From: Streptacidiphilus pinicola
Lineage (GTDB): Bacteria > Actinomycetota > Actinomycetes > Streptomycetales > Streptomycetaceae
DNA: 35,847 nt
Assembly: GCF_003258295.1 (NCBI RefSeq)
Contig: NZ_QKYN01000122.1
Location: 565-36,411 of the forward strand
Direction of reading: 5' to 3'
Shown piece after piece: positions 15,740 to 34,000 of the stretch. Within the stretch, counting starts at the first letter, position 1, and each line of letters opens with the position of its first letter. Below the pieces are notes generated by a model that was given only the letters and a program-made list of their open reading frames with translations, was not told where the DNA came from and did no database searches. A program made the translations under genes and the position numbers.

Positions 15740-15754
15740 CTGACGGACCGTCAG
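15740..15754. promoter_or_regulatory. TetR-type operator, site A (CTGACGG-A-CCGTCAG)
   Basis: A perfect 7+1+7 inverted repeat centred at 15747, in the 91-bp space between the divergent isochorismatase (start 15691) and amidohydrolase (start 15783) genes. An extra half site GGTCCGTCAC lies just left. The left flank GAATCTGACGG matches sites B and C. It can control both directions. Confidence 0.85.
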
Positions 15755-15782
15755 GTAAAGGGTCGTGGAGAGGGAGCCCTGG

Positions 15783-17000
15783 ATGGAAAGCTCTGCCGAA
15801 CTGCCCATGGTGGTGAGCGTCGACGACCACGTGATCGAGCCGGCGCACCTCTTCGAGACCTGGCTCCCGGCCAAGTACCGCGACCGCGGCCCCAAGGCGC
15901 TGCGCGCGGGCATCGGCCAACTGGAGTACATCGGGGGCAAGTACCGCATCTCCATGGATCCCGACGGCCCGCCGACCGACTGGTGGATCTACGAGGACCT
16001 GCAGTTCCCGTACAAGCGCAACATCGCCGCGGTCGGCTTCGACCGCGACGAGATGACGCTGGAGGGCATCACCCGCGACGAGATGCGCCGAGGCTGCTGG
16101 GACCCCAAGGCCCGCCTCGAGGACATGGAGAACAACCACGTCGAGGCGTCCCTGTGCTTCCCGACCTTCCCCCGCTTCTGCGGCCAGACCTTCGCCGAGG
16201 CGCGCGACAAGGAGGTCGCACTGGCCTGCGTCCGCGCCTACAACGACTGGATGGTCGACGAGTGGTGCGGCGATAGCGGCGGCCGGCTCATCCCGCTCTG
16301 CCTGATCCCGCTGTGGGACGTGGAGTTGGCGGTCGCGGAGATCCAGCGCAACGCCGCACGTGGCGTGCGGGCGGTCTGCTTCAGCGAGATCCCGACGTAC
16401 CTGGGCCTGCCCAGCATCCACACCGGCTACTGGGACCCGTTCTTCGCCGCCTGCGAGGCGACCGGAACGGTCGTCTGCATGCACATCGGCTCCTCCTCGC
16501 AGATGCCCGCCGCCTCCCCGGACGCGCCCCCCGCGGTACAGGCGACGCTGAGCTTCAACAACGCGATGGCGTCGATGACCGACTTCCTCTTCAGCGGTGT
16601 GCTGGTGCGCTTCCCGCGGCTGAAGCTCGCGTACAGCGAGGGCCAGATGGGCTGGATCCCGTACGCCCTGGAGCGCGCGGACGACGTCTGGCGCGAGCAC
16701 CGCGCCTGGGGCGGGGTGCGGGACCTGATCCCCGAGCCGCCCTCCACGTACTACTACCGGCAGATCTACGCCTGTTTCTTCCGTGACAAGCACGGGGTCG
16801 CCTCGCTGGACACGGTCGGGGTCGACAACGTGACCTTCGAGACGGACTACCCGCACGTGGATTCCACCTGGCCGGAGACGAAGGCAGTGGCGTTGGACCA
16901 TGTGAAAGGGCTGCCTGCGGACGTCGTCTACAAGATCATGCGCGGGAACGCCATCCGCATGCTGGAGCTGGATCTCGACCGGCACCTGAAGTCGCACTGA
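15783..17000 (+). CDS. Amidohydrolase-2 family protein (ACMSD-like metal-dependent decarboxylase/hydrolase)
   Basis: A 405-residue TIM-barrel protein of the PF04909 family. Metal-site candidates are D14-D15-H16 in VSVDDHVIEP (replacing the usual HxH), a His near residue 233 in VVCMHIGSSS, and the Asp near 354 in FETDYPHVDSTWP. The internal segment KARLEDMENNHVEASLCFPTFPRFCGQTFAEA is typical of the large actinobacterial amidohydrolases found next to acyl-CoA dehydrogenases. Members decarboxylate or hydrolyse ring-derived intermediates; the reaction here is unknown. The start is set by GAGAGGGAG about 8 bp before ATG 15783; an in-frame ATG at 15765 lacks such a site. It is the first gene right of operator A and is followed by a hairpin and two acyl-CoA dehydrogenase genes. 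Confidence 0.87.
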   Translation: MESSAELPMVVSVDDHVIEPAHLFETWLPAKYRDRGPKALRAGIGQLEYIGGKYRISMDPDGPPTDWWIYEDLQFPYKRNIAAVGFDRDEMTLEGITRDEMRRGCWDPKARLEDMENNHVEASLCFPTFPRFCGQTFAEARDKEVALACVRAYNDWMVDEWCGDSGGRLIPLCLIPLWDVELAVAEIQRNAARGVRAVCFSEIPTYLGLPSIHTGYWDPFFAACEATGTVVCMHIGSSSQMPAASPDAPPAVQATLSFNNAMASMTDFLFSGVLVRFPRLKLAYSEGQMGWIPYALERADDVWREHRAWGGVRDLIPEPPSTYYYRQIYACFFRDKHGVASLDTVGVDNVTFETDYPHVDSTWPETKAVALDHVKGLPADVVYKIMRGNAIRMLELDLDRHLKSH

Positions 17001-17004
17001 CCTC

Positions 17005-17037
17005 AGGGGCGCGGGGAACGCAGGTCCCCGCGCCCCT
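17005..17037. terminator. Strong hairpin of the dispersed GGGGCGCGGGGA family
   Basis: Perfect 13-bp arms AGGGGCGCGGGGA (17005-17017) and TCCCCGCGCCCCT (17025-17037) enclose a 7-nt loop. It lies in the 61-bp gap between the amidohydrolase and first acyl-CoA dehydrogenase genes, so it may attenuate or process the operon mRNA. The arm sequence recurs at 12201 and 27724. Confidence 0.75.
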
Positions 17038-17061
17038 CAATGGCTAAGGAGAGTGCCATCG

Positions 17062-18210
<1,149 letters not shown>

Positions 18211-18213
18211 CGG

Positions 18214-19092
18214 ATGGAGTTCCGACTGACAGAGGATCAGCACAGCCTGCAGCGGGCGCTGCGCCAGGTAGTGACGGATCGTCAACCCTCATGGCAGGAG
18301 CTGACCGAGGTCGGGCTCTTCCAACTCCGGGTGCCGGAGCCGGAGGGCGGGTTGGGGCTCGGTCTGCCGGAGGCGGTGCTCGCGTTCGAGGAGGCGGGTC
18401 GGGCCGTGCTGGCCGGCCCGCTGGTCGGGACGGAGGTCGCGGCGGCCGTGCTCGGGCTGGACGGCCGGGCCGAGGTGGTGCGGGTGCCCGCACGCGGGCC
18501 CGTCCTGGTGCCGGAACTGCCGACGCTCGACCACGTCCTGCTGCTCCACCCGGACGACTCCCTCGCCGTGCTCCCCGCGGCCGCGGTGGACGCCGCGCCC
18601 GCGGCGGCCGTCGACCCGGACCGGCCGCTGTGGCGACTCGACGGCACGCCGCCGCCCGGCGAGCGCACACCCGAGACGCGGCGCGTCGCCGCCGACGCGA
18701 CGCTGCTCACGGCCGCGCTGCAGGTCGGCCTCGCCTCCCGCACGGTGGCCGAGGCGGTGGCGTACGCGCGCACGCGCGAACAGTTCGGACAACCGATCGG
18801 GGCGTTCCAGGCCGTGCAGCATCTCTGCGCGGACATGCTGGCCCGCGCCGAGCTCGCCCGGGTCGCCGTCTACGCCGCCGCCGTCTCGGGCGACGAGGTG
18901 GAGATCGCCGGCGCCAAGCTGCTCGCCGACGACGCGGCCGTGCACGGTGCCCGCGACTGCCTGCAGGTTCACGGCGGCATGGGGTTCACCTGGGAGGCGC
19001 GGGTGCACCGGCTGCTCAAGCGCGCCTGGGCGTGGGAGCAGGCCGGCGCGGACCGCGAGCGGTGCCTGGAGTCGCTGGCGACGCGCCTGTAG
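18214..19092 (+). CDS. Acyl-CoA dehydrogenase, short partner subunit
   Basis: A 292-residue protein, about 90 residues shorter than typical members. The N-terminal helical part (MEFRLTEDQHSLQRALRQVV, then VGLFQLRVPEPEGGLGLGLPEAVLAFEEAGRAVLAGPLVGTEVA) and the C-terminal helical domain (AEAVAYARTREQFGQPIGAFQAVQHLCADMLARAELARVAVYAAA, then CLQVHGGMGFTWEARVHRLLKRAWAWEQ) are conserved. The middle beta domain is cut down to an Ala/Pro-rich stretch (about 85-150). RTREQFGQPIGAFQ and QVHGGMGFTWE are classic FAD and dimer contacts. Loss of the middle domain fits the non-catalytic or half-site subunit of alpha2beta2 dehydrogenases. It starts 3 bp after its partner's stop and closes the operon. Confidence 0.86.
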   Translation: MEFRLTEDQHSLQRALRQVVTDRQPSWQELTEVGLFQLRVPEPEGGLGLGLPEAVLAFEEAGRAVLAGPLVGTEVAAAVLGLDGRAEVVRVPARGPVLVPELPTLDHVLLLHPDDSLAVLPAAAVDAAPAAAVDPDRPLWRLDGTPPPGERTPETRRVAADATLLTAALQVGLASRTVAEAVAYARTREQFGQPIGAFQAVQHLCADMLARAELARVAVYAAAVSGDEVEIAGAKLLADDAAVHGARDCLQVHGGMGFTWEARVHRLLKRAWAWEQAGADRERCLESLATRL

Positions 19093-19404
19093 CACTGGTG
19101 TCGTAAGGGTGTTTTTGTCGCGACGCCTCGCGGATTCCGGGTGTCGCGGTGCGGTTCGGTTACGCTCACGGGGGTGCGCAGCAAGCAGTCCGCCCGCGGG
19201 ATCGGAGAGGTCGTGGACCCCTCGGTCGCCGGGGACAGAGCGGCCGGGGCAGTATGCACCCCTGGGTGCCCCCTCGGCTGGAATATGCCCGAAGACCATG
19301 CTCCTGGCGGTCGCGGCGGATCATCCTGGTCCGTATACGCGCCGGTACGCGGCTCGCGCGGTGGTCCGGCCCGGCTGATCCCGCAAGCACGGGTGGTGTG
19401 ACAG
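19093..19404. other. 312-bp intergenic region before the RsbW-like gene
   Basis: No convincing gene is present. It holds a short T-run shortly after the acyl-CoA dehydrogenase stop (about 19111-19116), a possible -10 TACGCT (19161-19166) and a small hairpin GCACCC/GGGTGC (19256-19269). GTATAC-rich sequence lies near 19335. A 26-codon frame at 19300-19380 could be a leader peptide but has no supporting ribosome site. Probably the promoter and leader of the gene at 19405. Confidence 0.4.
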
Positions 19405-19851
19405 GTGCAGGTGCAGGCACAGGAGCTACAGGTCCAGACGGCGGTCCAGGCCGACCCGGCCGAGGTGGGTCGGGCCCGTCACTGGGCGCGCAGCCGGCTC
19501 ACCGGCTGTGGCATCGCCCTCGACGACTCCCTCGCGGACACGTTGGTGCTGGTCGTGTCCGAGCTGGTCACCAACGCGGTGGTGCACGCGGGCTCGCCGG
19601 CGGTGCTGCGGCTGGTCTTCCCCGTCGGCCAGGACGCGGAGCGCCGTCCGGTGCGGGTCGAGGTCTCCGACGCCAGCGAGGCGCCGCCCGCGCAGCGCGT
19701 CGCGCCGGACGAGGCGACGGGCGGCCGCGGCCTGGAGCTGGTCAGCGTCCTGACGGACCGCTGGGGCTGGTGCCCGGACGGCAGCGGCAAGCGCGTCTGG
19801 TGCGAACTCCTCCCCGAGGAGCCGGTGGCCGTGGCGGCGTCGCGCCCCTGA
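19405..19851 (+). CDS. RsbW-like ATP-binding protein (HATPase_c, anti-sigma/serine kinase type)
   Basis: A 148-residue single-domain GHKL ATPase. The helix RARHWARSRLTGCGI is followed by the N-box LVVSELVTNAVVHAGS, the G1 region VEVSDASEAPPA and the G2 box TGGRGLELVSVLTDRWG. The ending G-S-G-K-R-V-W-C-E-L is typical of the many Streptomyces regulatory ATPases of this type. Such proteins phosphorylate STAS antagonists and/or bind sigma factors. No sigma or STAS gene adjoins it; the STAS gene at 9565 is the only candidate partner in the window. GTG 19405 and GTG 19411 are both possible starts. It interrupts the catabolic region and is followed 55 bp later by an SGNH hydrolase gene on the same strand. 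Confidence 0.87.
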   Translation: MQVQAQELQVQTAVQADPAEVGRARHWARSRLTGCGIALDDSLADTLVLVVSELVTNAVVHAGSPAVLRLVFPVGQDAERRPVRVEVSDASEAPPAQRVAPDEATGGRGLELVSVLTDRWGWCPDGSGKRVWCELLPEEPVAVAASRP

Positions 19852-19906
19852 GGCGAGGGCGACGACCCTGCGGTTGATCGTCTTCACGGCCGGGAAGGGA
19901 TGCAGC

Positions 19907-20944: not shown

Positions 20945-21069
20945 CGCGCGCTCGGACCACGAACGGATGAAGGCTCAAACGTTACGCAACCAATCCGAAT
21001 TCCGGACAAGCCATTGACGTGACGTGTCCGCCTGATCACGCTTGGGTCCAGCGATTCGTTGCGAGGGGA

Positions 21070-21156: not shown

Positions 21157-21189
21157 GGGGCACCTCCGGCCGCGGGGTCGGGGGCTGGT

Positions 21190-21236: not shown

Positions 21237-21275
21237 ATCCGACGTTCCGGCCGCCCCTCGGCGCCCCGCTTCCGG

Positions 21276-22211
21276 CTACTTGACCGCGACCGGCGCCACC
21301 GGCGCGCCCACGCCGCCGACGAACGGCTCGGGCGTCGCGGCCAGCAGGAACGCGTGGACGCCGTCGGCGGCGCAGTCCGCCGCCAGGGCCTCCAGGTTCC
21401 AGTTCTGGCCCTGCATCATGCCCATCTCCACCAGGTCCAACGCGTGGACGGGCAGGTAGAGGCCGTCCACCTCCGGCGGGAAGATCTCGAAGGTCAGCGT
21501 GTCGTTGGCGACCGCCGCCACGTCCCGCGCGTGGAACCACTCCGGGCAGCGCAGGCCGAGGCCGGGGGAGGGGAAGGCGTAGGCGTCGCGGTCCCCGCCC
21601 AGGTAGAACTGCATCTGCCCGGTGCGGATCAGCACCACGTCACCGCCTCGGACGGTCGTGCCGGCCTGCGCCTCGGCCGCGTCCAGGTCCTCGGGGGTGA
21701 CGACGTGGTCGCCCGGCAGCCGGCTCACGCCGTGCAGGCGCGCGATGTCGAGCAGTACGCCGCGGGTGACCAGTGCCCCGGCCTTCTCGATGCCCGAACG
21801 CGTGGCGCCGTCTTGGGCGTTGATGCTGTCCGCGGGCCGGTTGTTGTAGATCCGTCCGCCGTGACTGACGTGCCCGAGGCCGTCCCAGTGGGTGGCCGCC
21901 TGCAGGCCGAGCGTGGCCACGTCGTCGCTGGTGGCGATGGCGCCCGGCCCGAACATCTCGAAGTTGAGCGCCACCATGGTGTGCAGTGGGTTGACCCGGC
22001 CCGGGATCATGCCGGTCTGCACGCCCTGCTGCCGCAGCGGGAGCGCGAGGTCGAAGCGTTTGCCGGTGCGCACGCAGCCGGCCGCCTCGCGGACCACGTC
22101 CGGGGTGATCAGGTTGAGCGTGCCGATCTCGTCCTCGGCACCCCAACGCCCCCAGTTGTTGACGCGTTTGGCGATGTCACGGAACTCGTCGAACTCGGCC
22201 GGTGCGGGCAC
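21276..22211 (-). CDS. Cyclase-family (kynurenine-formamidase-like) metal-dependent hydrolase
   Basis: A 311-residue protein of the PF04199 cyclase family. The metal-binding signature reads THWDGLGHVSHGG, a form of the HxGTHxD motif seen in the longer members of this family. Other family blocks are NWGRWGAEDEIGTLNLITPDVV at the N-terminus, GVLLDIARLHG, VLIRTGQM and SPGLGLRCPEWFHARDVAAVANDT. These enzymes hydrolyse N-formyl or ring lactam/lactone bonds using Mn or Zn; the substrate here is unknown. GTG 22211 has GAGGAGG upstream. It is divergent from the SDR-led operon, and operator B at 22251 lies between them, so it should be co-regulated with that operon. Confidence 0.87.
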   Translation of the reverse strand: MPAPAEFDEFRDIAKRVNNWGRWGAEDEIGTLNLITPDVVREAAGCVRTGKRFDLALPLRQQGVQTGMIPGRVNPLHTMVALNFEMFGPGAIATSDDVATLGLQAATHWDGLGHVSHGGRIYNNRPADSINAQDGATRSGIEKAGALVTRGVLLDIARLHGVSRLPGDHVVTPEDLDAAEAQAGTTVRGGDVVLIRTGQMQFYLGGDRDAYAFPSPGLGLRCPEWFHARDVAAVANDTLTFEIFPPEVDGLYLPVHALDLVEMGMMQGQNWNLEALAADCAADGVHAFLLAATPEPFVGGVGAPVAPVAVK

Positions 22212-22250: not shown

Positions 22251-22275
22251 AGAATCTAACGGTCCGTCAGATTCT
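22251..22275. promoter_or_regulatory. TetR-type operator, site B
   Basis: A 12+1+12 inverted repeat centred at 22263, with a single mismatched pair (22258/22268). Outer arms are AGAATCT and AGATTCT; the core is CTAACGG-T-CCGTCAG. It lies 39 bp from the cyclase GTG and directly abuts the GAGGAGG of the SDR gene, so a bound repressor would block both promoters. The longest and most symmetrical copy of the motif in the window. Confidence 0.85.
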
Positions 22276-22291
22276 TGAGGAGGGGTACGGC

Positions 22292-23200
22292 GTGGCTGAG
22301 TTCCTGCGCGGCAAGGTGGTCGCGGTGACCGGCGCCGGACGCGGCATCGGGCGTGCGGTGGCGCTCGCCTGTGCCGCCGAGGGAGCCAAGGTCGTGGTCA
22401 ACGACTACGGCGTCGGCATCGACGGCTCCGCGCCGACCAGCGAGGTCGCGGACGAGGTCGTCAAGGAGATCGAGGCGGCCGGCGGCGAGGCCGCGGCCGT
22501 CGCCGACGACATCGCCACGATGGCGGGGGGCGAGCGCGTCGTCCGCACGGCCGTCGAGGCCTTCGGCCGGCTCGACGGCGTGGTCTGCGTGGCCGGCATC
22601 CTGCGTGAGCGGATGCTCTTCAACATGTCCGAGGAGGAGTGGGACCCGGTCATCGCCACCCACCTCAAGGGCACCTTCACCCTCTTCCGCGCCGCCTCCG
22701 CGCTGATGCGCCAGCAGGGCGGCGGCACGCTGGTCGGCTTCACCAGCGGCAACCACCAGGGCTCGGTCAGCCAGGCCAACTACAGCGCGGCCAAGGGCGG
22801 CGTCATCTCCTTGGTCCGCAGCGCCGCACTGGGCCTGCACAAGTACGGCGTCACCGCCAACTGCGTGGCCCCGGTGGCTCGTACCCGCATGTCGGCAGGA
22901 GTCCCGATGGAGCTCAAGGAGATCGGCGAACCGGAGGACGTGGCCGCGCTCGTGGTCTACCTGCTCTCCGACACCGCGCGCGAAATCACCGGGCAGGTCT
23001 ACACCGTGGCCGGACCGAAGATCGCCGTCTGGGCCCAGCCGCGCGAACTGCGGGCCATGTACGCCGAGTCGGGCTCCTGGACCCCGGAGCGGATCGCCGA
23101 CTTCCTGCCCGGCACGGTCGGGGTGGACCCGATGCCGATGCTGCAGCAGCTGCAGGCCATGGCCAAGGCGGCCGCCGCCAAGGAACGTCCCAATGCCTAG
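22292..23200 (+). CDS. Short-chain dehydrogenase/reductase (hydroxyacyl-CoA dehydrogenase type)
   Basis: A 302-residue SDR. The cofactor-binding motif VAVTGAGRGIGRAVALACAAEGAKVVVNDYG carries an Asp after the second strand, which favours NAD over NADP. Then come VCVAGILRERMLFNMSEEEWDPVIATHLKGTF and the catalytic YSAAK near residue 164. The NDYG(V).IDGS...ADEVVKEI insert is that of the SDR domain of peroxisomal multifunctional enzyme 2, whose substrates are 3-hydroxyacyl-CoAs. A C-terminal extension after about 250 (WAQPRELRAMYAESGSWTPERIADFLP) also fits that group. GTG 22292 has GAGGAGG. It leads an operon with acyl-CoA dehydrogenase, aldehyde dehydrogenase and alcohol dehydrogenase genes, placing it in a beta-oxidation-like step. 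Confidence 0.88.
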   Translation: MAEFLRGKVVAVTGAGRGIGRAVALACAAEGAKVVVNDYGVGIDGSAPTSEVADEVVKEIEAAGGEAAAVADDIATMAGGERVVRTAVEAFGRLDGVVCVAGILRERMLFNMSEEEWDPVIATHLKGTFTLFRAASALMRQQGGGTLVGFTSGNHQGSVSQANYSAAKGGVISLVRSAALGLHKYGVTANCVAPVARTRMSAGVPMELKEIGEPEDVAALVVYLLSDTAREITGQVYTVAGPKIAVWAQPRELRAMYAESGSWTPERIADFLPGTVGVDPMPMLQQLQAMAKAAAAKERPNA

Positions 23201-23215
23201 AGGCTGGTGAGAGCG

Positions 23216-24385
23216 ATGGACTTCGCCTTCGACGCGGCGGACGAGGAGTTCCGCACCCGCGCACGGCAGTGGCTCGCGGAACGGCTCGGCCCCGGCGGCG
23301 CCTTCGCCGACCTGCGCGGCGTCAAGGCGCCCGAGGACGCCGACCGGCGCCGCGCCTGGGAGCGCGAGCTCGGCGCCGGCGGCTGGATCGGCCTCGGATG
23401 GCCCGAGGACAGCCTGACCCGGCAGGTCGTCTGGTTCGAGGAGTACGCGCGGGCGGGGGCCCCCGACCCGCTCGGCATCGTCGGCGAGCAACTGCTCGCG
23501 CCGACCCTGCGGCTGCACGGCACCCCCGCCCAGTGCGAGCGCTACCTGCCCGGCATCGCCGACGGCACCGTCATCTGGTGTCAGGGCTACAGCGAACCCG
23601 AGGCCGGCTCCGACCTCGCGAGCGTGCGCACCACCGCCGAACGGGCGCCGGACGGGGCCGGTTGGCTGGTCAGCGGGCAGAAGACCTGGACGTCGCTGTC
23701 CCAGTGGGCCGACTGGTGCTTCGTGCTGGCCCGCACCGAGCCCGGCTCGAAGCGCCACGCCGGGCTCAGCCTGCTGCTGCTGCCGATGGACCAGGAGCCC
23801 GGCCGGATCGAGGTGCGCCCGATCCGGCAGCTCGACGGCGTCAGCGAGTTCAGCGAGGTCTTCTTCGACCGGGCGCGGGCGGTCGACGTCCTCGGCGCGG
23901 TCGGCGAGGGCTGGCGGGTCGCGATGACCCTGCTCTCCTTCGAACGCGGCGCAGGCATGCTGGGCCGTCAGATCGGCTACCAGCGCGAACTCGACGCCGT
24001 GCTGCGCGCGGCGGCCAACTCCGGTGCGGACCGCGACCCCGTGCTGCGGGAGGCGCTCACGCGCCAGTGGGCCGAGCTCTGGGTGATGCGCGCGAACGCG
24101 CTGCGGACCCTGGGTCAGGCCGAGCCGGGGACGGCTGCGGTGGCCAAGCTGGTCTGGGGCAACTGGCACCAGCGGCTGGGGGAGCTGGCGCTCCACGTGC
24201 AGGGCCTCCCCGGCGCGTTCGTGACCGGCGCGGCGCACACGCCGGACGCCTACCCGCTGACCCCCGCCCAGCACACGCTGCTCTTCTCCCGCGCGGACAC
24301 CATCTACGGCGGCAGCGACCAGATCCAGCGCAACATCATCGCCGAGCGCGTTCTCAGCTTGCCCCGCCAGCCGATCTCCGAGTGA
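23216..24385 (+). CDS. Acyl-CoA dehydrogenase
   Basis: A 389-residue FAD enzyme with all three domains. Signatures are TVIWCQGYSEPEAGSDLASVRTTAER (about 119-144), QKTWTSLSQWADWCFVLARTE, the EFSEVFFDRARAVDVLGAVGEGWRVAMTLLSFERG segment and the terminal YGGSDQIQRNIIAERVLSLPRQ. It is similar in layout to the gene at 17062 and may be a paralogue acting on a related CoA ester. It lacks an adjacent short partner, so it is probably a homo-oligomer, or it shares the partner at 18214. ATG 23216 is 15 bp after the SDR stop. The next gene follows after 12 bp, so the operon continues. Confidence 0.9.
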   Translation: MDFAFDAADEEFRTRARQWLAERLGPGGAFADLRGVKAPEDADRRRAWERELGAGGWIGLGWPEDSLTRQVVWFEEYARAGAPDPLGIVGEQLLAPTLRLHGTPAQCERYLPGIADGTVIWCQGYSEPEAGSDLASVRTTAERAPDGAGWLVSGQKTWTSLSQWADWCFVLARTEPGSKRHAGLSLLLLPMDQEPGRIEVRPIRQLDGVSEFSEVFFDRARAVDVLGAVGEGWRVAMTLLSFERGAGMLGRQIGYQRELDAVLRAAANSGADRDPVLREALTRQWAELWVMRANALRTLGQAEPGTAAVAKLVWGNWHQRLGELALHVQGLPGAFVTGAAHTPDAYPLTPAQHTLLFSRADTIYGGSDQIQRNIIAERVLSLPRQPISE

Positions 24386-25897: not shown

Positions 25898-26971
<1,074 letters not shown>

Positions 26972-27071
26972 CGGTGCGTAAATGTCTGCGGGGAGCCCCC
27001 CGTGCGTGCATGATCGGTCCGGATCCAGCGGACGGTCCCACGTGACCGGCACTCTGCAGACAGGAATGCGC

Positions 27072-27716
27072 ATGAAGATCGCAGTTCTCGGCACCGGCGA
27101 GGTCGGCCACACGCTCGCCACCCGGCTGGCCGGCCTCGGGCACCAGGTCACCATGGGCTCGCGCAGCGCGGACAACCCCGCCGCGAAGGAGTGGGCGGCG
27201 GCCAACGCCGCCGCCCACGGCACCTTCGCCGACGCGGCGGCCGACGCCGAGCTCGTCGTCAACGCGACCGGCGGACTCGTCTCCCTGGCCGCGCTGACCG
27301 CGGCGGGCGCGGAGAACCTGCGCGGCAAGGTCGTCGTCGACGTCTCCAACCCGCTCGACTTCTCGGAGGGCTTCCCGCCGAAGATCGCCACGCCGGACGG
27401 CGTCAGCGTCGCCGAGCAGCTGCAGCGCGCCTTCCCCGAGGCGCGCGTGGTGAAGACGCTCAACACGATGAACAACGCGGTCATGGTCGCCCCGGGCCGG
27501 GTCCCGGGCCACCACAACGTCTTCCTCAGCGGCGACGACGCCGACGCGAAGTCGACCGTCAGCGAGCTGCTGCAGTCCTTCGGCTGGGCGGCCGATCAGA
27601 TCATCGACCTCGGCGACGTGACCAGCGCGCGGGCCACCGAGCAACTCACCGGCCTCTGGGTCCGCCTCTACGGCGTTCTCGGCACCGGAGACTTCAACTT
27701 CGGCATCGTGCGGTAG
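27072..27716 (+). CDS. NADPH-dependent F420 reductase-type oxidoreductase
   Basis: A 214-residue Rossmann protein of the F420-dependent NADP reductase (NpdG/YraR-like) family. The opening MKIAVLGTGEVGHTLATRLAGLGHQVTMGSRS has the GxGxxG motif and an SRS that suits NADP phosphate. Then come VVNATGGLVSLAALTAAGAENLRGKVVVDVSNPLDF, VVKTLNTMNNAVMV and HNVFLSGDDADAKSTVSELLQSFGW. True Npd enzymes transfer hydride between NADPH and F420; many short relatives have unknown acceptors. AGGA at 27062-27065 sets the start at ATG 27072. It is separated from the alcohol dehydrogenase by 100 bp, so it may have its own promoter. Confidence 0.87.
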   Translation: MKIAVLGTGEVGHTLATRLAGLGHQVTMGSRSADNPAAKEWAAANAAAHGTFADAAADAELVVNATGGLVSLAALTAAGAENLRGKVVVDVSNPLDFSEGFPPKIATPDGVSVAEQLQRAFPEARVVKTLNTMNNAVMVAPGRVPGHHNVFLSGDDADAKSTVSELLQSFGWAADQIIDLGDVTSARATEQLTGLWVRLYGVLGTGDFNFGIVR

Positions 27717-27723
27717 TGGCACC

Positions 27724-27831: not shown

Positions 27832-27844
27832 CGTGCAACTCCCC

Positions 27845-28831
27845 TCAGTCCACAGCCTTGAACGTCCTCCGGTACGCGGTCGGGGAGACGCCCAGCACGG
27901 AGTGCATGTGTTGGCGCAGGCTCGCCGCGCTGCCGAAGCCCACGGCGTGGGCGACGCGGTCCACCGTCAGTTCGCCCTGCTCCAGCAGGCGACGCGCGCG
28001 GTGGACGCGTTGGACGAGGAGCCATTGGACGGGGCTCTGCCCGGTCTCCTCGCGGAAGCGGCGGGTGAAGGTGCGGACGCTCATGCCGCAGCGCTCGGCG
28101 AGGAGGCCGAGGGTGAGGTTGTCCGCGAGGTGTTCCAGCGCGTGGGCGCGGGCCGGGGCCGTGCCGGAGGCGCCGGGTTCCGGGACGGCCACCTCGACGT
28201 ACTGGGCCTGGCCGCCCTCACGCCACGGCGCAACGACGCAGCGGCGGGCCACGTGGTTGGCCACGGCGGAGCCGAGATCACGGCGGACGATGTGCAGGCA
28301 CAGGTCGATGCCCGCCGCGACGCCGCCGGAGGTCAGCACCTCGCCGTCGTCGGTGAACAGCACGTCAGGGTCGAGCAGCACCTGCGGGAACAGCTGCCGG
28401 AAGCGGTCGGTGTAACGCCAGTGCGTCGTCGCGCGGCGGCCGTCCAGCAGGCCGGCCGCGGCGAGGACGAAGGAGCCGGTACAGATGGAGACCACCCGGG
28501 TGCCGGGCCGGACGAAGCCGAGTGCGCGCTCCAGCTCGGGCGTGAGCCGGCCGTCCGTGAAGACGGGGCCGAGCTCGAAGGAGGCCGGGACGATCACGGT
28601 GTCGGCCTCGGCCAGCAGCTCCGGGCCGTGCTCGACGACGACGCGGAAGTCGCTGCTGGTGCGCACCGGCTCGCCGTCCAAGGAGCAGGTGCGGACGCGG
28701 TAGTGGGGAGCCTCGTCCTTCTCGTGCGCGGACTCGAAGACGCGCGAGGGCGTGGAGAGCTCGAAGGCGACCACGCCCTCCATCGCCAGGACGGCGACCT
28801 CGTGTGGGCGGGAAGCAGTACGCGTGGCCAT
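27845..28831 (-). CDS. GlxA-family AraC-type transcriptional regulator (DJ-1/PfpI domain plus AraC HTH)
   Basis: A 328-residue protein. Residues about 10-180 are a class-I glutamine-amidotransferase/DJ-1-like domain, with the nucleophile-elbow Cys in VVSICTGSFVLAAAGLLDGRRATTHW and LTSGGVAAGIDLCLHIV. In GlxA regulators this domain is thought to bind a ligand. Residues about 230-325 hold the two HTHs of AraC/XylS: LTLGLLAERCGMSVRTFTRRFREETGQSP and VDRVAHAVGFGSAASLRQHMHSVLGVSPTAYRRTF. It is divergent from the MFS carrier (88 bp between starts), so control of that transporter is the obvious hypothesis. It is the only dedicated regulator inside the catabolic region. Confidence 0.92.
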   Translation of the reverse strand: MATRTASRPHEVAVLAMEGVVAFELSTPSRVFESAHEKDEAPHYRVRTCSLDGEPVRTSSDFRVVVEHGPELLAEADTVIVPASFELGPVFTDGRLTPELERALGFVRPGTRVVSICTGSFVLAAAGLLDGRRATTHWRYTDRFRQLFPQVLLDPDVLFTDDGEVLTSGGVAAGIDLCLHIVRRDLGSAVANHVARRCVVAPWREGGQAQYVEVAVPEPGASGTAPARAHALEHLADNLTLGLLAERCGMSVRTFTRRFREETGQSPVQWLLVQRVHRARRLLEQGELTVDRVAHAVGFGSAASLRQHMHSVLGVSPTAYRRTFKAVD

Positions 28832-28919
28832 GACGCCACTCTGCTCCTGGCCTGATCCTTGCGCAAGGTGGCCTTCGGGCCACTCGCTGCCGCGCCGCCC
28901 GGCACGGCAAGCTCCTCGG

Positions 28920-30254
28920 GTGACCGATCAGCTTGAATCCACCCCCGCCGTCGAGAGTCCCGGCCACACTCGACCGAACGGGCCGCGCCTGCACTACGCG
29001 TGGATCGTCGCCGCCGTCGCACTCGTCGTCCTGGTCGGCGCGGCGGGCTTCCGCTCCACGCCGTCCCTGCTGATGGAACCGCTGCACCACGAGTTCGGCT
29101 GGTCGCACGGCCTGGTCGGCACCGCCGTCTCGATCAACGTGCTGCTCAACGGACTGGCGGCGCCGTTCGCCGCCGCGCTGATGGACCGCTTCGGCATCCG
29201 TCCCGTGGTCTCCGCCGCGCTCGCCGTGATGGCGCTCGGGGCGGGCGTGACCATCGTCATGGACCAGCCGTGGGAACTGCTGCTCGGCTGGGGCTTCCTC
29301 GTCGGCCTCGGCTCCGGCTCGATGGCGCTCGCGTTCAGCGCGACCGTCACCGCGCGCTGGTTCGTGGCCCAGCGCGGCCTGGTCACGGGGGTGCTGACGG
29401 CCGCGAGCGCCGCGGGCAACCTGGTGTTCCTGCCGGTGCTGGCCTGGCTGGTGCAGCAGTACGGCTGGCGCAGCGCCTCGATCACGGTGGCGGTCTGCGC
29501 GCTCGCGGTGGTGCCGGTCGTGGCGCTGCTGATGCGCGAGCGCCCCTCGGACCTCGGCCTGCTGCCCTACGGCGCGCCCGAGGACCACGTCGAGCCGGAG
29601 GTGCCCGCCGGACGCGGCCTGCGTGCGGTGCGGGTGCTCCGCGAGGCGGCGCGCACCCGCGCGTTCTGGCTGCTGACCGGCTCGTTCGCGATCTGCGGCG
29701 CCACCACCAACGGCCTGGTCGGTACGCACTTCATCCCGGCCGCCGGCGACCACGGGATGGCCGAGACCGCCGCGGCCTCGCTGCTCGCGCTGGTGGGCAT
29801 CTTCGACGTGGTCGGCACCGTCTTCTCCGGCTGGCTGACCGACCGTCTGGACTCGCGCAAGCTGCTCGGCGTCTACTACGTGCTGCGCGGCGCCTCGCTG
29901 CTGGTGCTGCCGGTGCTGTTCGCCAGGACCGTGCACCCGAGCATGGTCGTCTTCATCATGTTCTACGGCCTGGACTGGGTCGCCACGGTGCCGCCGACGG
30001 TGGCGCTGTGCCGGGAGTGGTTCGGCGACGACGCGCCGGTGGTGTTCGGCTGGGTGCTCTGCGGCCACCAGGTCGGCGCGGCGATCGTCGCTGCCCTGGC
30101 CGGGGTGATCCGCGACCAGCTCGGCAGCTACGACCTCGCCTGGTACGGGGCGGGCGCGCTCTGCGCGGTCGCGGCCGCCTGCTCGCTGATGCTGCGCCGG
30201 CCCGGCGCGGAGGAAGGGACGCCGCTGCGCCCTACTGTTCCCGCAGCTGCCTGA
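28920..30254 (+). CDS. Major facilitator superfamily transporter (monocarboxylate/oxalate-type)
   Basis: A 444-residue integral membrane protein with about 12 hydrophobic helices, starting after a short polar N-tail (helix 1 about 23-43, YAWIVAAVALVVLVGAAGF). The loop 2-3 MFS signature is MDRFGIRPVV, the central loop is about 190-220 (MRERPSDLGLLPYGAPED), and the matching loop 8-9 motif is SGWLTDRLDSRKLLG. Overall it resembles oxalate/formate- and monocarboxylate-type carriers, so import of the carboxylic acid handled by this region is plausible but unproven. GTG 28920 (VTDQLESTP) is the likely start; a longer frame upstream runs into the divergent GlxA-like gene. Its last 23 bp overlap the end of the convergent flavin reductase gene. 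Confidence 0.87.
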   Translation: MTDQLESTPAVESPGHTRPNGPRLHYAWIVAAVALVVLVGAAGFRSTPSLLMEPLHHEFGWSHGLVGTAVSINVLLNGLAAPFAAALMDRFGIRPVVSAALAVMALGAGVTIVMDQPWELLLGWGFLVGLGSGSMALAFSATVTARWFVAQRGLVTGVLTAASAAGNLVFLPVLAWLVQQYGWRSASITVAVCALAVVPVVALLMRERPSDLGLLPYGAPEDHVEPEVPAGRGLRAVRVLREAARTRAFWLLTGSFAICGATTNGLVGTHFIPAAGDHGMAETAAASLLALVGIFDVVGTVFSGWLTDRLDSRKLLGVYYVLRGASLLVLPVLFARTVHPSMVVFIMFYGLDWVATVPPTVALCREWFGDDAPVVFGWVLCGHQVGAAIVAALAGVIRDQLGSYDLAWYGAGALCAVAAACSLMLRRPGAEEGTPLRPTVPAAA

Positions 30255-30858
30255 AGTTGCTGCGGTAGAAGACCAGCGGACCGGCCTGCTCGCCGCGCGG
30301 CGCGGCGAGCTCCCGGATCCGGCCCAGCACGATCAGGTGGTCCCCGCCGGTGTGCACGGCGTGGATGGTGCAGTCCACCCACGCCAGCGCGCCCTCCAGC
30401 CGCGGCGAACCCGTGGCCGGCGCCGCCTGCCAGGCGACGCCCGCGAACTTGTCCGCCCCGGTGGACGCGCTGACGGCGAAGGACCGGCACAACTCGCCCT
30501 GGTCGTCGGCCAGCACGTTGACGCAGAACGCGCCCGCGCGCGCGATCCGCGGCCAACTGGTCGAGGTCCGCGCCACGTTGAAGCAGATCAACGGGGGGTC
30601 CAGGGAGAGGGACGAGAAGGACTGGCAGGCGAACCCCACCGGCTGTCCGTCCTCACCGGCAGCGGTGATCACGGTGATCCCGGTGGCGAAGTGGCCCAGC
30701 GCGTCCCGCAACTGCCGGTTTTCCGCGGCCTCCTGGAGCGCGGGCTCGGCCGCCTCCTCCGCCAGCACGGCCTCCTCCACAGTGGGCGCGACACTCAGCG
30801 GCGCCCCGACCGCCCGCAGATAGCGGACGGCGGCCACCGCCATTCCTTCGTGCCCCAT
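30232..30858 (-). CDS. Flavin reductase-like FMN-binding protein (HsaB/HpaC type)
   Basis: A 208-residue protein. After a 45-residue Ala/Glu-rich N-terminal extension the flavin-reductase domain reads LRDALGHFATGITVITAAGEDGQPVGFACQSFSSLSLDPPLICFNVARTSTSWPRI, then FCVNVLADDQGELCRSFA and KFAGVAW, ending HLIVLGRIRELA and GPLVFYRSNFRQL. It should reduce FMN or FAD with NAD(P)H and usually supplies a two-component monooxygenase. No oxygenase subunit is visible in the window, so either the partner is elsewhere or it serves another role. ATG 30858, or ATG 30843 as a shorter start. A half copy of the regulon operator (TTGAATCTGATG, 30893-30904) lies 35 bp upstream of its start. Confidence 0.88.
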   Translation of the reverse strand: MGHEGMAVAAVRYLRAVGAPLSVAPTVEEAVLAEEAAEPALQEAAENRQLRDALGHFATGITVITAAGEDGQPVGFACQSFSSLSLDPPLICFNVARTSTSWPRIARAGAFCVNVLADDQGELCRSFAVSASTGADKFAGVAWQAAPATGSPRLEGALAWVDCTIHAVHTGGDHLIVLGRIRELAAPRGEQAGPLVFYRSNFRQLREQ

Positions 30859-30936
30859 GCTTCGCTCCTCCGCTTCGTCCCGCTGCCACCGATTGAATCT
30901 GATGCCCTGGTTCCATGGCCAGTGAAGCCAGTGCAG

Positions 30937-31731
30937 CTAACGCCCCTCGAATTTCGCTGCACGCCGTTCCACGAACGCGCGGACGCCTTCCTGCGCATCG
31001 TGCGTCGTCATGTTGATCTCCTGCGCGGTCGCCTCCGCCGCGAACGAGGCGGCCCGGTCCCCGTCGAGGGACGCGTTGACCAGAGCCTTCGTCAGTGCGT
31101 AGGCCCGCGTCGGCCCGGTGGCGAGGCGGTCGGCCCACTCGGCCACCACCTTCTCCAGCTCCGGGCCCGGCACGACCCGGTTGACCAGGCCGATCCGTTC
31201 CGCGTCCGCCGCGCGCACCTTCTCGCCCAGGAAGAGCAGCTCCTTGGCCCGCTGCACGCCCACCAGCCGTGGCAGCAGCCAGGCCGCGCCGCCGTCCGGG
31301 ACGAGCCCGCGCTTGGCGAAGACCTGGACCAGCGAGGCCTCCTCCGCCGCGACCACCAGGTCGCAGGCCAGCGCCAGCTGGACGCCGATCCCGGCGGCCA
31401 CGCCGTTGAGCGCGCAGAGCACCGGCTTCTCGCAGTCCAGCACGGCGGAGACCATCCGCTGCACGCCCTGCCGCAGCATCCGTGCGACGTCCCCCGGAAT
31501 TCGCTCTCCCTCTGCGCCGCCGCTCAGGTCCGCCCCGGAGCAGAAGGCGCGCCCGGCGCCGGTCAGCACCACGACCCGCACGTTCCGGTCCGCCGACGCC
31601 TGCTCCAGCGCGGCGATCAGCCGCTCCCGCAGCTCCGCCGTGACGGCGTTCAGCGCCTCGGGGCGGTTCAGCGTCAGCCGCCGCACCCCGTTCCCCGCGT
31701 CGTCCTCGACCAGCAGCACCGCGTCGCTCAC
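30937..31731 (-). CDS. Enoyl-CoA hydratase/isomerase family protein
   Basis: A 264-residue crotonase-fold enzyme. RLTLNRPEALNAVTAELRERLIAAL, the oxyanion-hole segment GAGRAFCSGADLSGG and the second block PVLCALNGVAAGIGVQLALACDLVVAAEEASLVQVFAKRGLVPDGGAAWLLPRLVG are all present. PDGG replaces the second catalytic Glu of classical hydratases, as in PaaG-like isomerases, so isomerase or hydratase activity cannot be decided. Its GTG start (31731) overlaps the TGA of the upstream ADP-forming synthetase (4-bp GTGA), so the two are translationally coupled. An alternative GTG at 31737 is less likely. It fits a beta-oxidation step on the CoA esters made in this region. Confidence 0.9.
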   Translation of the reverse strand: MSDAVLLVEDDAGNGVRRLTLNRPEALNAVTAELRERLIAALEQASADRNVRVVVLTGAGRAFCSGADLSGGAEGERIPGDVARMLRQGVQRMVSAVLDCEKPVLCALNGVAAGIGVQLALACDLVVAAEEASLVQVFAKRGLVPDGGAAWLLPRLVGVQRAKELLFLGEKVRAADAERIGLVNRVVPGPELEKVVAEWADRLATGPTRAYALTKALVNASLDGDRAASFAAEATAQEINMTTHDAQEGVRAFVERRAAKFEGR

Positions 31732-33884
31732 CTGCACACCGCCAGCGCGTCCAAGGCCACGACTCCCTTTCCCCGTTCCAGCACCACCAGCGGGTTGATG
31801 TCCAACTCCGCCAGCCGATCCCCGAGTTCGAGCGCCATTCGCTGAACTCGCAGCACCACGTCGACGAGCGCGTCCACGTCCATCGGCGGCAGGCCGCGCA
31901 CGCCGTCCAGCAGCGGGCGGCAGCGCAGCCGGGCCAGCGCGTCGCGCACGTCCCCGGGGCCGAACGGCGGGACCAGCACCGTGGTGTCGCGCATGACCTC
32001 GACGAAGACTCCGCCCATGCCGACCGTGACGGTCGGCCCGAACACCGCGTCGTCGGTGACGCCGACGACCATCTCGACACCCGCCTCGACCATCTGGCAG
32101 ACCAGCACGCCGTCCAGCCGGGCGATCCCGCCCGCCCGCGCGTTCTCCGTCAACTCACGGAAGGCCTCCCGTACTTGGCTGGCACTGGTCAGGCCGACCT
32201 TCACCAGTCCCAGTTCGGTCTTGTGCGCCACGTCCGGGGCGGAGCCCTTGAGGACCACCGGGTAGCCGACCACCCCGGCCGCGCGGACCGCGCCCGCGGC
32301 GCTGGTGACCAGCTGCTCGCGCGGGACCCGGATGCCGTAGGAGCGCAGCAGCTGCTTGGCCGCGAACTCGCTGAGCTTCTCGCCGCCGCGCAGCAGCCGC
32401 TCCGCCTTCGCCTTGCCGGCGCAGGCCTCGCGCGGGGCCTCGTCGAAGGGGGAGCGGTAGGAGCGGACGAACTCGTGGTGCCGCAGGTAGGCGGAGACCG
32501 CCTTCACGCAGTTGCCGAAGGTGCGGAAGACCGCGACCCGCGAGGAGCCGAGCAGCGTCTCCCGGTAGGCCGCCTCGGTGCCGACCGGGGAGCCCCAGAT
32601 GACGCAGACCAGCTTGTCCGTGGTCTCCGCGACCTCGACCAGGTCCTGCGCCAGCTTGTCGCTCATCGGCGGGAACGGGCCGGTGATCGGGCAGATCAGC
32701 ACGCCCACGTCCGGGTCGTCCAGGATCGCGTCCAGGATTCTGCGCCCGCGCCAGTCGCCGACCGGGTGGCCGCCGTTGTCGACGGGGTTGGCCACACTCA
32801 GGTACTCGGGAATCCACTGGTGCAGCTCGTCCTGCTTGGCCTGCGACAGGCGCGGCAGCGTGAGCCCGGCCGCCGAGGCCATGTCGGCCAGGTGCGCGCC
32901 GGTGCCACCGGAGATGGAGTAGACGACGACACCGGGCGCCCGCGGCGGCTTGGCCCGCGCCAGCAGGGCCGCGGTGTCCTGGAGCTCGTCCAGGCCCTCC
33001 ACGCGGATCACGCCGAACTGGCGGAAGGCCGCGTCCACGACGTCGTCCGCGCCGGTCAGCTTGCCGGTGTGGGACTGCGCCATCCGCGCGCCCTCGTCGG
33101 TGCGGCCGACCTTGACGGCGACGACCGGCACGCCGCGCCGGGCGGCGTGGTCCGCGGCCAGCAGGAAGGCCCGGCCGTCCTTGATGCCCTCGATGTAGGC
33201 GGCCATGGCGCCGATCTCGGGCTGGTCGGCGAACCACTGCACGAAGTCGGCGACCTCGAGGTCGGCCTCGTTGCCCGTCGGTGCCCAGTGGCTGAGCCGG
33301 ATGCCCAGCTCCTGCAGCGCGAACAGCGGCCGGCCCTGGTGCCCGGACTGGGTGATCAGCGCGATCGCCGGGCCGGAGAGGTCCTCGCGGAACCGCTCGA
33401 AGGCGTTGAGGTTGGTGTTCGGGCCGAGCAGCCGCAGGCCCGTCGGGGCCTCCGCGACCAGGCTCTCCAGCCGCCGCTGCGCCTCGCGCCCGCGCTCGCC
33501 GGTCTCGGCGAAGCCGGAGGCGAAGGCCACCGCGAACTTCACCTTCGCCTCGATCAACTGCGGCAGCACGGCCGCCGGATCGGCGAGCAGGACGACCGCC
33601 AGGTCGATCGGGTCCGCGTCCGGGTCGGCCGGGATCGAGGCGAGGTAGGGGTAGCAGGGCAGCCCGTCGACCTCGTCCCGTCCGGGATTGACCGGGTACA
33701 TCCGCGCCCCGACCCGCTCCGACCAGGCGCGCAGCTGCTTGGTGATCCCGGTGTTGGGCCGGTCCGGCGTGTCGGACGCCCCGATGACGGCGACGGACGC
33801 GGGCCGGAAGAAGCGGTCCAGGTCCACCGCGCGCGGGCGTAGTGCCCGTCCGCTCGCGTCGCTCTCGGTGTCCGTCTCCCGCAT
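31728..33884 (-). CDS. ADP-forming acyl-CoA synthetase, single-chain (acetate-CoA ligase family)
   Basis: A 718-residue protein joining the CoA-binding/ligase domains (alpha-type) and the ATP-grasp domain (beta-type). The N-terminal Rossmann CoA site is FFRPASVAVIGASDTPDRPNTGITKQL, followed by the ligase part with TQSGHQGRPLFA. The phospho-His candidate is in MAQSHTGKLTGADDVVDAAF (His near residue 272). After a hinge come SEFAAKQLLRSYGIRVPREQLV, GYPVVLKGSAPDVAHKTELGLVKVGL and the ATP-grasp ending ELDINPLVVLERGKGVVALDALAV. It interconverts an acyl-CoA, ADP and phosphate with the acid, CoA and ATP; related actinobacterial proteins act on varied acids. ATG 33884 lies 46 bp from operator C. It heads a unit with the enoyl-CoA hydratase. 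Confidence 0.9.
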   Translation of the reverse strand: MRETDTESDASGRALRPRAVDLDRFFRPASVAVIGASDTPDRPNTGITKQLRAWSERVGARMYPVNPGRDEVDGLPCYPYLASIPADPDADPIDLAVVLLADPAAVLPQLIEAKVKFAVAFASGFAETGERGREAQRRLESLVAEAPTGLRLLGPNTNLNAFERFREDLSGPAIALITQSGHQGRPLFALQELGIRLSHWAPTGNEADLEVADFVQWFADQPEIGAMAAYIEGIKDGRAFLLAADHAARRGVPVVAVKVGRTDEGARMAQSHTGKLTGADDVVDAAFRQFGVIRVEGLDELQDTAALLARAKPPRAPGVVVYSISGGTGAHLADMASAAGLTLPRLSQAKQDELHQWIPEYLSVANPVDNGGHPVGDWRGRRILDAILDDPDVGVLICPITGPFPPMSDKLAQDLVEVAETTDKLVCVIWGSPVGTEAAYRETLLGSSRVAVFRTFGNCVKAVSAYLRHHEFVRSYRSPFDEAPREACAGKAKAERLLRGGEKLSEFAAKQLLRSYGIRVPREQLVTSAAGAVRAAGVVGYPVVLKGSAPDVAHKTELGLVKVGLTSASQVREAFRELTENARAGGIARLDGVLVCQMVEAGVEMVVGVTDDAVFGPTVTVGMGGVFVEVMRDTTVLVPPFGPGDVRDALARLRCRPLLDGVRGLPPMDVDALVDVVLRVQRMALELGDRLAELDINPLVVLERGKGVVALDALAVCR

Positions 33885-33930
33885 GGCGCGCCTCCGATCC
33901 GGTCTGTACTGCCGACTGTCCCGCCGTCTG

Positions 33931-33953
33931 TAATCTGACGTACCATCAGATTA
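33931..33953. promoter_or_regulatory. TetR-type operator, site C
   Basis: Arms TAATCTGA (33931-33938) and TCAGATTA (33946-33953) are perfect around the spacer CGTACCA, centred at 33942. It matches sites A and B over the AATCTGACG...TCAGATT frame. It lies 46 bp from the synthetase start on the minus strand. Confidence 0.83.
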
Positions 33954-33985
33954 CTGTCGGGGGCGCTTCTCAGGAAGACGTCGAA

Positions 33986-34000
33986 CTGACGCTGCGTCAG
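33986..34000. promoter_or_regulatory. TetR-type operator, site D (CTGACGC-T-GCGTCAG)
   Basis: A perfect 7+1+7 inverted repeat centred at 33993, 51 bp (about five helical turns) from site C. It sits just before the GGGGAGG of the DoxX-type gene at 34023. The outer AT-rich flanks of sites A-C are weaker here. Confidence 0.8.

What the first reader, a model, noticed from the sequence alone, without database searches (positions are those of the whole stretch)
15740..34000. One inverted-repeat operator shared by three divergent promoter regions: a catabolic regulon without a local regulator
Four copies of the same palindrome were found: A (15740-15754), B (22251-22275), C (33931-33953) and D (33986-34000). 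They align as AATCTGACGGNCCGTCAGATT with one-base centres. Each lies between divergent genes close to starts or ribosome sites, facing six transcription units: isochorismatase-like/acyl-CoA ligase; amidohydrolase/two dehydrogenases; cyclase; SDR/dehydrogenase/ALDH/ADH; ADP-forming synthetase/hydratase; and DoxX/DUF35. This ties about 14 genes into one regulon although unrelated genes interrupt them. The repeat is of TetR-operator type and no TetR gene is present, so the regulator would be encoded elsewhere. I know of no described pathway with exactly this gene set; novelty is not proven.
Basis: partly seen in the sequence, partly recalled or inferred. Interest (0 to 1): 0.85.

Follow-up and report, generated by a model that had tools for sequence, protein, structure and literature searches.

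The report
Shared operator of a TetR-controlled catabolic regulon
The repeated palindrome marks promoters that are very probably switched off by one conserved TetR-type repressor of unassigned function, whose gene lies just beyond the end of this stretch next to the kinase gene afsK, so a set of genes for breaking down CoA-linked compounds gains a likely master switch.

Summary
All four palindromes are present: 5 matches at up to 3 mismatches in the window, 0.13 expected (the fifth lies in an ORF). The genome (8.4 Mb, Streptacidiphilus-like) has 31 copies at up to 2 mismatches, control 0; 27 of 31 are intergenic, 26 of these within 250 bp of a called gene start. Sites A and B recur before their orthologs in 11 of 11 and 16 of 16 relatives with a complete upstream region, C/D in 25 of 27 ligase loci, own included.

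'No local regulator' is wrong in substance. The contig ends at the window edge. In 23 of 26 genomes with the ligase, it shares a contig with a conserved TetR, 1.7-17.6 kb away (6.6-9.2 kb in the same genus). In 16 of 20 loci of other families, TetR 40-53% identical, the palindrome lies within 400 bp upstream of that TetR. By synteny it is S. coelicolor SCO4421, a whiA-dependent, spore-expressed TetR with no detected mutant phenotype (PMC3878966, passages). It probably represses CoA-dependent degradation of alicyclic or steroid-like acids; binding, ligand and substrate are inferred. New member of a known kind (KstR-like regulons).

The parts
15738..15756 (.). operator A, ATCTGACGGACCGTCAGGT, about 26 bp before the amidohydrolase start (15783) and 46 bp from the isochorismatase-like start (15691)
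   Evidence: found at the orthologous promoter in 11 of 11 relatives with a hit and a complete upstream region, of 20 loci given
22254..22272 (.). operator B, ATCTAACGGTCCGTCAGAT, between cyclase (-) and SDR (+)
   Evidence: 16 of 16 relatives with an SDR hit, of 20 loci given; the deviant CTAACG half is kept in 16 of 16
33933..33951 (.). operator C, ATCTGACGTACCATCAGAT, in front of the ADP-forming acyl-CoA ligase (-)
   Evidence: 25 of 27 ligase loci carry a site of up to 3 mismatches near the ligase start (one of the 27 is the window's own, and L216 and L218 have none)
33984..34002 (.). operator D, AACTGACGCTGCGTCAGTA, in front of DoxX/DUF35 (+); 51 bp from C
   Evidence: a second site in several relatives, at 24-97 bp, most often 51
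30896..30904 (+). half-site AATCTGATG between flavin reductase and enoyl-CoA hydratase; many relatives have a palindrome here, so this looks like a decayed fifth operator (inference)
   Evidence: a site of up to 3 mismatches before the flavin reductase ortholog in 14 of 20 relatives' loci
13500..15632 (-). ORF of AMP-forming acyl-CoA ligase (AMP-binding domain starts at residue 201, so the real start is probably near 15070)
   Evidence: PF00501 4e-57
15065..15691 (-). isochorismatase-like hydrolase
   Evidence: PF00857 9.4e-25 on ORF 15065-15955; start chosen from sequence
15783..17000 (+). amidohydrolase family 2
   Evidence: PF04909 7.4e-46 on ORF 15765-17000
17053..18210 (+). acyl-CoA dehydrogenase
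18214..19092 (+). acyl-CoA dehydrogenase-like
21276..22211 (-). PF04199 cyclase
22292..23200 (+). SDR (3-oxoacyl reductase-like)
23207..24385 (+). acyl-CoA dehydrogenase
24398..25885 (+). aldehyde dehydrogenase
   Evidence: PF00171 5.9e-153
25898..26971 (+). zinc alcohol dehydrogenase
26982..27716 (+). F420-dependent NADP oxidoreductase-like protein, last gene of the B operon (operon membership inferred from spacing)
   Evidence: PF03807 6.7e-12
30232..30858 (-). flavin reductase
   Evidence: PF01613 7.4e-45
30937..31737 (-). enoyl-CoA hydratase
   Evidence: PF00378 4.8e-66
31728..33884 (-). ADP-forming acyl-CoA ligase (fused alpha/beta)
   Evidence: PF13549, PF13607; best NCBIfam models below cut-off
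34023..34487 (+). DoxX family membrane protein
   Evidence: PF07681 5.5e-06 on ORF 34008-34487
34574..34996 (+). DUF35 / ChsH2-type zinc-ribbon OB-fold protein
   Evidence: PF01796, PF12172 on ORF 34061-34996
27845..28831 (-). AraC-type regulator (DJ-1/PfpI + HTH), considered and rejected as the cognate regulator
   Evidence: no ortholog hit in 8 of the 20 relatives' loci

Best explanation
The palindrome ATCTGACG-N3-CGTCAGAT is the operator of one conserved TetR-family repressor, here at G000:C33:3610-4254(-), orthologous by synteny with S. coelicolor SCO4421 next to afsK. A dimer binds at promoters of catabolic operons (A-D here, 28 other good sites in the genome) and blocks transcription. 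An intermediate of the pathway, most likely an acyl-CoA or carboxylic acid, would bind the C-terminal pocket and release it, so that ligases, acyl-CoA dehydrogenases, thiolase/DUF35 pairs, SDRs, P450 and flavin/F420-type oxidoreductases are made together. In other actinobacterial families the repressor seems to control its own gene through the same site. In Streptomycetaceae only a degenerate site overlaps its start codon, and in S. coelicolor its promoter is whiA-dependent and spore-specific. Shown by computation: the sites, their conservation, linkage to the TetR, co-occurrence with it, fold. Inferred: binding, repression, ligand, substrate, the adjacency of contigs C51 and C33, and that family f1 is Streptomycetaceae.
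For: Window sites beyond chance. 28-71 sites at up to 2 mismatches in each of 14 same-genus genomes, control 0-1. Conservation at orthologous promoters. TetR gene found in 51 of 61 relatives, namely all 51 of families f1 and f3; the 10 without it have 0-2 sites (in G006 the gene is in three pieces). In 80 named loci around it (76 Streptomyces, 2 Streptacidiphilus, 1 each titled Streptosporangium and Microtetraspora; 1.17 Mb) 226 sites at up to 3 mismatches against 0 control, in 71 of 80 loci. In 20 loci of other families (of 24 such genomes with a TetR match), 43 sites against 0 control in 309 kb, and a site of up to 3 mismatches within 400 bp upstream of the TetR match in 16 of 20. In five f1 loci, each of another genus, the site precedes a co-directed gene followed by the TetR; in the two scanned that gene is an SDR. 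Class-wide sample of 394: 48 of 64 TetR-carrying genomes have 7 or more sites, 1 of 330 without a match does. TetR fold with pLDDT 88.8, nearest solved fold EthR. Targets: thiolases, acyl-CoA dehydrogenases, FadD3-family ligase, DUF35/MaoC, P450, luciferase-like monooxygenases.
Against: No binding or expression data. In 80 of 80 named loci the best match in the 400 bp upstream of the TetR has 5 mismatches, over the start codon; 97 of 800 random windows of that length do as well or better. In 4 of 20 distant loci no site of up to 3 mismatches precedes the TetR. 16 of 64 TetR-carrying genomes have fewer than 7 sites, one of them none, and the f1 genome G024 has the TetR but 0 sites. In one search only 7 candidates per genome were scored, so some absences may be false. 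At up to 3 mismatches, distant families with the TetR (f20, 25-41) hardly exceed genomes without it (3-26). In the f15 genomes the site is over-abundant (68-244 copies), and the 16 distinct occurrences read in G134 are mostly inside ORFs or between convergent genes, which a promoter operator does not explain. Some sites in G000 sit by genes with no obvious link (kumamolisin-like protease/MerR, sortase, aminotransferase). Relatedness inflates the co-occurrence counts.
Confidence: 0.85

Rival explanations
1. The operator belongs to the genome's KstR ortholog: the regulon is simply the KstR cholesterol regulon with a drifted motif.
For: A KstR ortholog exists at C67:37788 (phmmer 7e-41 to solved KstR), about 15 kb and 8 kb from two sites on C67, and the regulated genes resemble KstR targets (P450, thiolase, DUF35).
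Against: The palindrome is tied to the C33-type TetR gene in other families. KstR's known operator (recalled: AAC-NN-GTT core) is unrelated. KstR was not searched across genomes here, so the comparison is one-sided.
Confidence: 0.06
2. The AraC-type regulator inside the window (27845-28831) is the cognate regulator.
For: It is the only regulator of a DNA-binding family that the Pfam scans found among the window genes between sites A and D.
Against: No site of up to 3 mismatches lies at its own promoter; no ortholog hit in 8 of the 20 relatives' loci, which keep sites; AraC regulators usually bind direct repeats (recalled).
Confidence: 0.02
3. The palindromes are hairpins or dispersed repeats (terminator- or REP-like), not operators.
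For: They are inverted repeats with 8-base arms and a 3-base centre; in f15 genomes similar words are very abundant and, in G134, mostly inside ORFs or between convergent genes.
Against: In G000, 27 of 31 are intergenic, none of these between convergent genes, and 26 of 27 have a called gene start within 250 bp; they sit at promoters of non-homologous genes and keep their place in relatives.
Confidence: 0.04
4. The sites are read by more than one related TetR repressor (overlapping specificities), with the C33-type TetR only one of them.
For: The genome holds at least 128 TetR matches; some sites lie by genes of unrelated function.
Against: Co-occurrence is with this TetR, but other TetRs were not tested in the same way.
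Confidence: 0.15

Closest known systems
KstR and KstR2 regulons (TetR repressors of steroid catabolism in mycobacteria and relatives)
   Same: One TetR repressor, a short palindrome at dozens of promoters, targets that include acyl-CoA ligases, acyl-CoA dehydrogenases, thiolases and ChsH2/DUF35 proteins; in N. simplex, KstR sites were predicted in 71 and KstR2 sites in 29 operons (PMC7807495, passages)
   Different: Different regulator (the KstR ortholog is a separate gene here) and, from recalled motifs, a different operator; substrate unknown
SCO4421 of Streptomyces coelicolor
   Same: TetR gene close to afsK (PMC3878966, passages); ortholog by synteny: all 80 named TetR loci also hold a match to the AfsK-like protein of C33
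   Different: That paper reports whiA-dependent, spore-specific expression and no detected mutant phenotype; no targets or operator are given in the passages seen
EthR (M. tuberculosis)
   Same: Nearest solved fold (TM-score 0.76-0.80 on the query, 18-19% identity)
   Different: EthR's motif is described as larger, complex and not a classical palindrome (PMC4482099, section 11); no orthology shown
SRTF1 / Acin1 motif of Nocardioides simplex
   Same: A further TetR steroid-responsive regulator beside KstR/KstR2 (PMC7807495, passages)
   Different: Its motif letters were not in the passages seen; no link tested

Membership tests
TetR family | N-terminal TetR HTH domain | tested here: met
   PF00440 at C33:4069-4182, 28.5 bits, over the cut-off of 24
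TetR family | all-helical TetR fold with ligand-binding C-terminal domain | tested here: met
   ten helices, pLDDT 88.8; EthR and other TetR structures are the top matches
TetR family | palindromic operator, commonly at its own promoter | tested here: met
   16 of 20 distant loci; in 80 of 80 named, mostly Streptomyces, loci only a degenerate 5-mismatch site
TetR family | DNA binding relieved by a small ligand | not testable with these tools
   needs EMSA and ligand assays
KstR / KstR2 | orthology with KstR or KstR2 | tested here: not met
   best solved relatives of this TetR are EthR at 5.5e-4, no chain named KstR or KstR2 among 22 hits; KstR ortholog is another gene
KstR / KstR2 | KstR or KstR2 operator motif | not tested
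   motifs recalled only; not scanned in this genome
one regulon (shared operator) | sites conserved at orthologous promoters | tested here: met
   11 of 11, 16 of 16, 25 of 27
one regulon (shared operator) | co-regulated expression | not testable with these tools
   no expression data at hand

The most novel reading that the evidence does not exclude
The SCO4421-type TetR is an old actinobacterial master repressor of CoA-dependent lipid/alicyclic-acid catabolism that in Streptomycetaceae lost its strong self-operator and passed under WhiA-dependent developmental control, so that spore-specific repressor synthesis shuts down catabolism in spores; its place beside afsK would tie catabolism to development.
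Probability: 0.35. Interest if true: 0.75.

Novelty: new member of a known kind. Interest (0 to 1): 0.55.

Why it matters
It gives a concrete, testable function (operator, targets, mutant already made) to a TetR regulator found in all 40 family-f1 genomes of the class sample, for which the one paper found reports no phenotype. It predicts a large catabolic regulon beside that of KstR in these organisms, and it suggests a link between sporulation control and catabolism. It also shows that 'no local regulator' can be an effect of a contig end.

Tried and rejected
AraC regulator in the window as cognate regulator: rejected. KstR as cognate regulator: disfavoured, though KstR was not searched across genomes. 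An XRE-like gene with a site upstream (L025:6330-7013): its site is also next to the divergent gene, and no cross-genome support was sought; not pursued. Genomes of the family with few sites (G018, G020, G023, G027, G033, G036) were searched to find a core regulon: the sites there are weak and gave no clear answer. f15 genomes were first taken as a huge expansion of the regulon; reading 18 rows (16 distinct sites, two seen twice in overlapping loci) in 15 loci of G134 showed 10 distinct sites inside called ORFs, 5 between convergent genes and 1 between co-directed genes, so f15 is left out of the argument: without the five f15 genomes the class test is 43 of 59 against 1 of 330, and the upstream-site count is 15 of 17 instead of 16 of 20. 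Paper searches for the motif letters gave nothing usable. A substrate could not be fixed: among the ligases sent to NCBIfam one passed a cut-off (FadD3 family); a deazaflavin-dependent oxidoreductase, GalE, a broad SDR model and an IS256 transposase also passed, and the other proteins sent matched only below cut-off or not at all.

Operator distances to the TetR are to the start of the tblastn match, not to a start codon.

Full report
Check of the observation. Against ATCTGACG-N3-CGTCAGAT, A, B and C have one mismatch and D three, D keeping a perfect CTGACG-N3-CGTCAG core. A window scan finds five places at up to three mismatches, with 0.13 expected; the fifth, at 34890, is inside an ORF. The window is contig C51:565-36411 of an 8.43-Mb genome, and the contig ends at 36411. 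The genome holds 31 places at up to two mismatches against 0 for the reversed pattern and 147 against 4 at up to three. Because eight genomes lacking a match to the regulator also show 3-26 places at up to three mismatches, I rely on the two-mismatch set. Of those 31, 27 are intergenic while intergenic sequence is 12% of the same loci; none of the 27 lies between convergent genes and 26 have a called gene start within 250 bp.

Conservation. In 20 relatives' loci fetched around the ligase, a site of up to three mismatches precedes the amidohydrolase in 11 of 11 loci with a hit and a complete upstream region, and the SDR in 16 of 16. The remaining loci had no hit of 60% identity in the fetched stretch, or in one case (L230, which also has the site) a cut upstream region. 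Of 27 ligase loci (the window's own included) 25 carry a site near the ligase start; L216 and L218 have none. The deviant CTAACG half of site B is kept in 16 of 16. In 14 of the 20 loci one more site lies before the flavin reductase; the window keeps only a half-site there (30896-30904).

The regulator. A search of this genome for PF00440 lists 128 matches (150 of 317 candidates scored). One of them, C33:3610-4254(-), lies among four good sites on C33. In relatives with longer contigs the ligase of sites C/D and this TetR are neighbours: of 26 genomes with the ligase, 23 have both on one contig, 6.6-9.2 kb apart in 12 of the same genus and 1.7-17.6 kb in 11 others; in G000, G001 and G014 they are on different contigs. 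In G002 the genes in between are, by position, DoxX, DUF35, a YkuD-domain protein, a KAS III-like gene (both by Pfam), thiolase and acyl-CoA dehydrogenase. C33 begins with a thiolase. So the window stops about 2 kb past the ligase, a few kb are probably missing between contigs, and the TetR follows. This rests on synteny, not on an assembled sequence.

Is this TetR the one that reads the palindrome? (i) It is found in 51 of 61 relatives, all 51 of families f1 and f3 (in G006 as three pieces); the 10 without it have 0-2 sites. (ii) Around it in 80 named loci (the best 80 of 587 confirmed; 76 titled Streptomyces; 1.17 Mb) there are 226 sites against 0 control, in 71 of 80 loci. (iii) In 20 loci from other families (20 of the 24 such genomes with a match), where the protein is only 40-53% identical, there are 43 sites against 0 control in 309 kb, and in 16 of 20 a site lies within 400 bp upstream of the TetR match (17 of 20 if four mismatches are allowed; L263, L264 and L270 have none; without the three f15 loci, 15 of 17). 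(iv) In five f1 loci, each of another genus, the TetR follows a co-directed gene whose promoter has the site; in the two scanned that gene is an SDR. (v) In a class-wide sample of 394 genomes, 48 of 64 with the TetR have at least 7 sites and 1 of 330 without a match does; that one is a 68%-complete genome of family f16, whose other members with 9-20 sites carry the TetR. Without the five f15 genomes the figure is 43 of 59. Relatedness inflates such counts, but within families the split is also seen: f16, 9-20 sites with the TetR and 0, 0, 1, 1 and 16 without; f20, 4-12 with and 0-6 without.

Against this reading. In 80 of 80 named loci the best match in the 400 bp before the TetR has 5 mismatches and overlaps the start codon; 97 of 800 random windows of that length do as well or better. 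It is nearly invariant (AGCTGACGGCATGACAGGA in 74 of 80), partly because it overlaps coding sequence. 16 of 64 TetR-carrying genomes have fewer than 7 sites and one has none; G024 has the TetR and no site. At three mismatches the f20 genomes (25-41) hardly exceed genomes without the TetR. One search scored only 7 candidates per genome, so some absences may be false. No other TetR was put through the same co-occurrence test.

What it is. NCBIfam's best model for the neighbour at C33:6222-8744 is AfsK (1101.7 bits, below its cut-off of 1300), and all 80 named TetR loci hold a match to that protein. PMC3878966 (passages) states that SCO4421 encodes a TetR family regulator close to afsK (SCO4423), is upregulated in development, lower in a whiA mutant, active in spores and not in vegetative hyphae, and that its deletion gave no detected phenotype. 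I infer that the window's regulator is the SCO4421 ortholog; I did not hold the S. coelicolor sequence. The predicted structure is a TetR fold (pLDDT 88.8) nearest to EthR at 18-19% identity. It is not KstR: the KstR ortholog is another gene, at C67:37788 (7e-41). By name the nearest relatives of the window's TetR are those of Streptacidiphilus anmyonensis and S. jiangxiensis, 100% identical.

Targets and mechanism. Site-bearing genes include AMP- and ADP-forming acyl-CoA ligases, acyl-CoA dehydrogenases (one IpdE2-like, below cut-off), thiolases, DUF35/ChsH2 and a MaoC fusion, SDRs, aldehyde and alcohol dehydrogenases, amidohydrolase, cyclase, P450, luciferase-like monooxygenases, a 2-oxoacid:ferredoxin oxidoreductase and a FadD3-family ligase over its cut-off. 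This resembles the make-up of a CoA-dependent pathway for alicyclic or steroid-like acids. Other sites lie by genes with no obvious link (kumamolisin-like protease/MerR, sortase, aminotransferase). The most likely mechanism is repression by a TetR dimer at the promoters with release by an acyl-CoA intermediate, as in KstR-type systems. Binding, direction of control, ligand and substrate are inferred.

Novelty. A search for SCO4421 in the held library gave one paper; searches for the motif letters or for a Streptomyces TetR regulon of this kind gave none whose listing describes it (listings only, open-access papers only). In kind it is known (a KstR-like regulon); what is new, as far as these searches show, is the assignment of operator, regulon and likely role to this regulator. 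The link to sporulation control is the boldest reading and is untested.

Noticed in passing
G134, G063, G085, G102, G118 (family f15); loci L275-L289: 68-244 copies of the palindrome at up to 2 mismatches per genome (control 0). Of 16 distinct occurrences read in G134, 10 lie in called ORFs, 5 between convergent genes and 1 between co-directed genes, so it looks like a dispersed palindrome of another kind. Gene calls there use a foreign codon model.
   Followed up: partly
L113-L192, TetR start: A degenerate palindrome (mostly AGCTGACGGCATGACAGGA) overlaps the TetR start codon in 80 of 80 loci, CTGACGGC directly before the ATG in 78; possibly a weak self-operator.
   Followed up: partly
G000:C67:37788 (L028:2401-3000): A clear KstR ortholog exists in this genome, so a separate steroid-type regulon is probably present.
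   Followed up: partly
window 33933-34002: Sites C and D lie 51 bp apart; where relatives have two sites the spacing is 24, 51, 60, 70, 93 or 97 bp, most often 51.
   Followed up: no
L025:6330-7013 (G000:C251): An XRE-like regulator gene has one site upstream and another downstream before an SDR gene; it may be a further regulator within the regulon.
   Followed up: no
window 4478-4987: DUF7945 protein of unknown function (4.3e-64), far from the sites.
   Followed up: no
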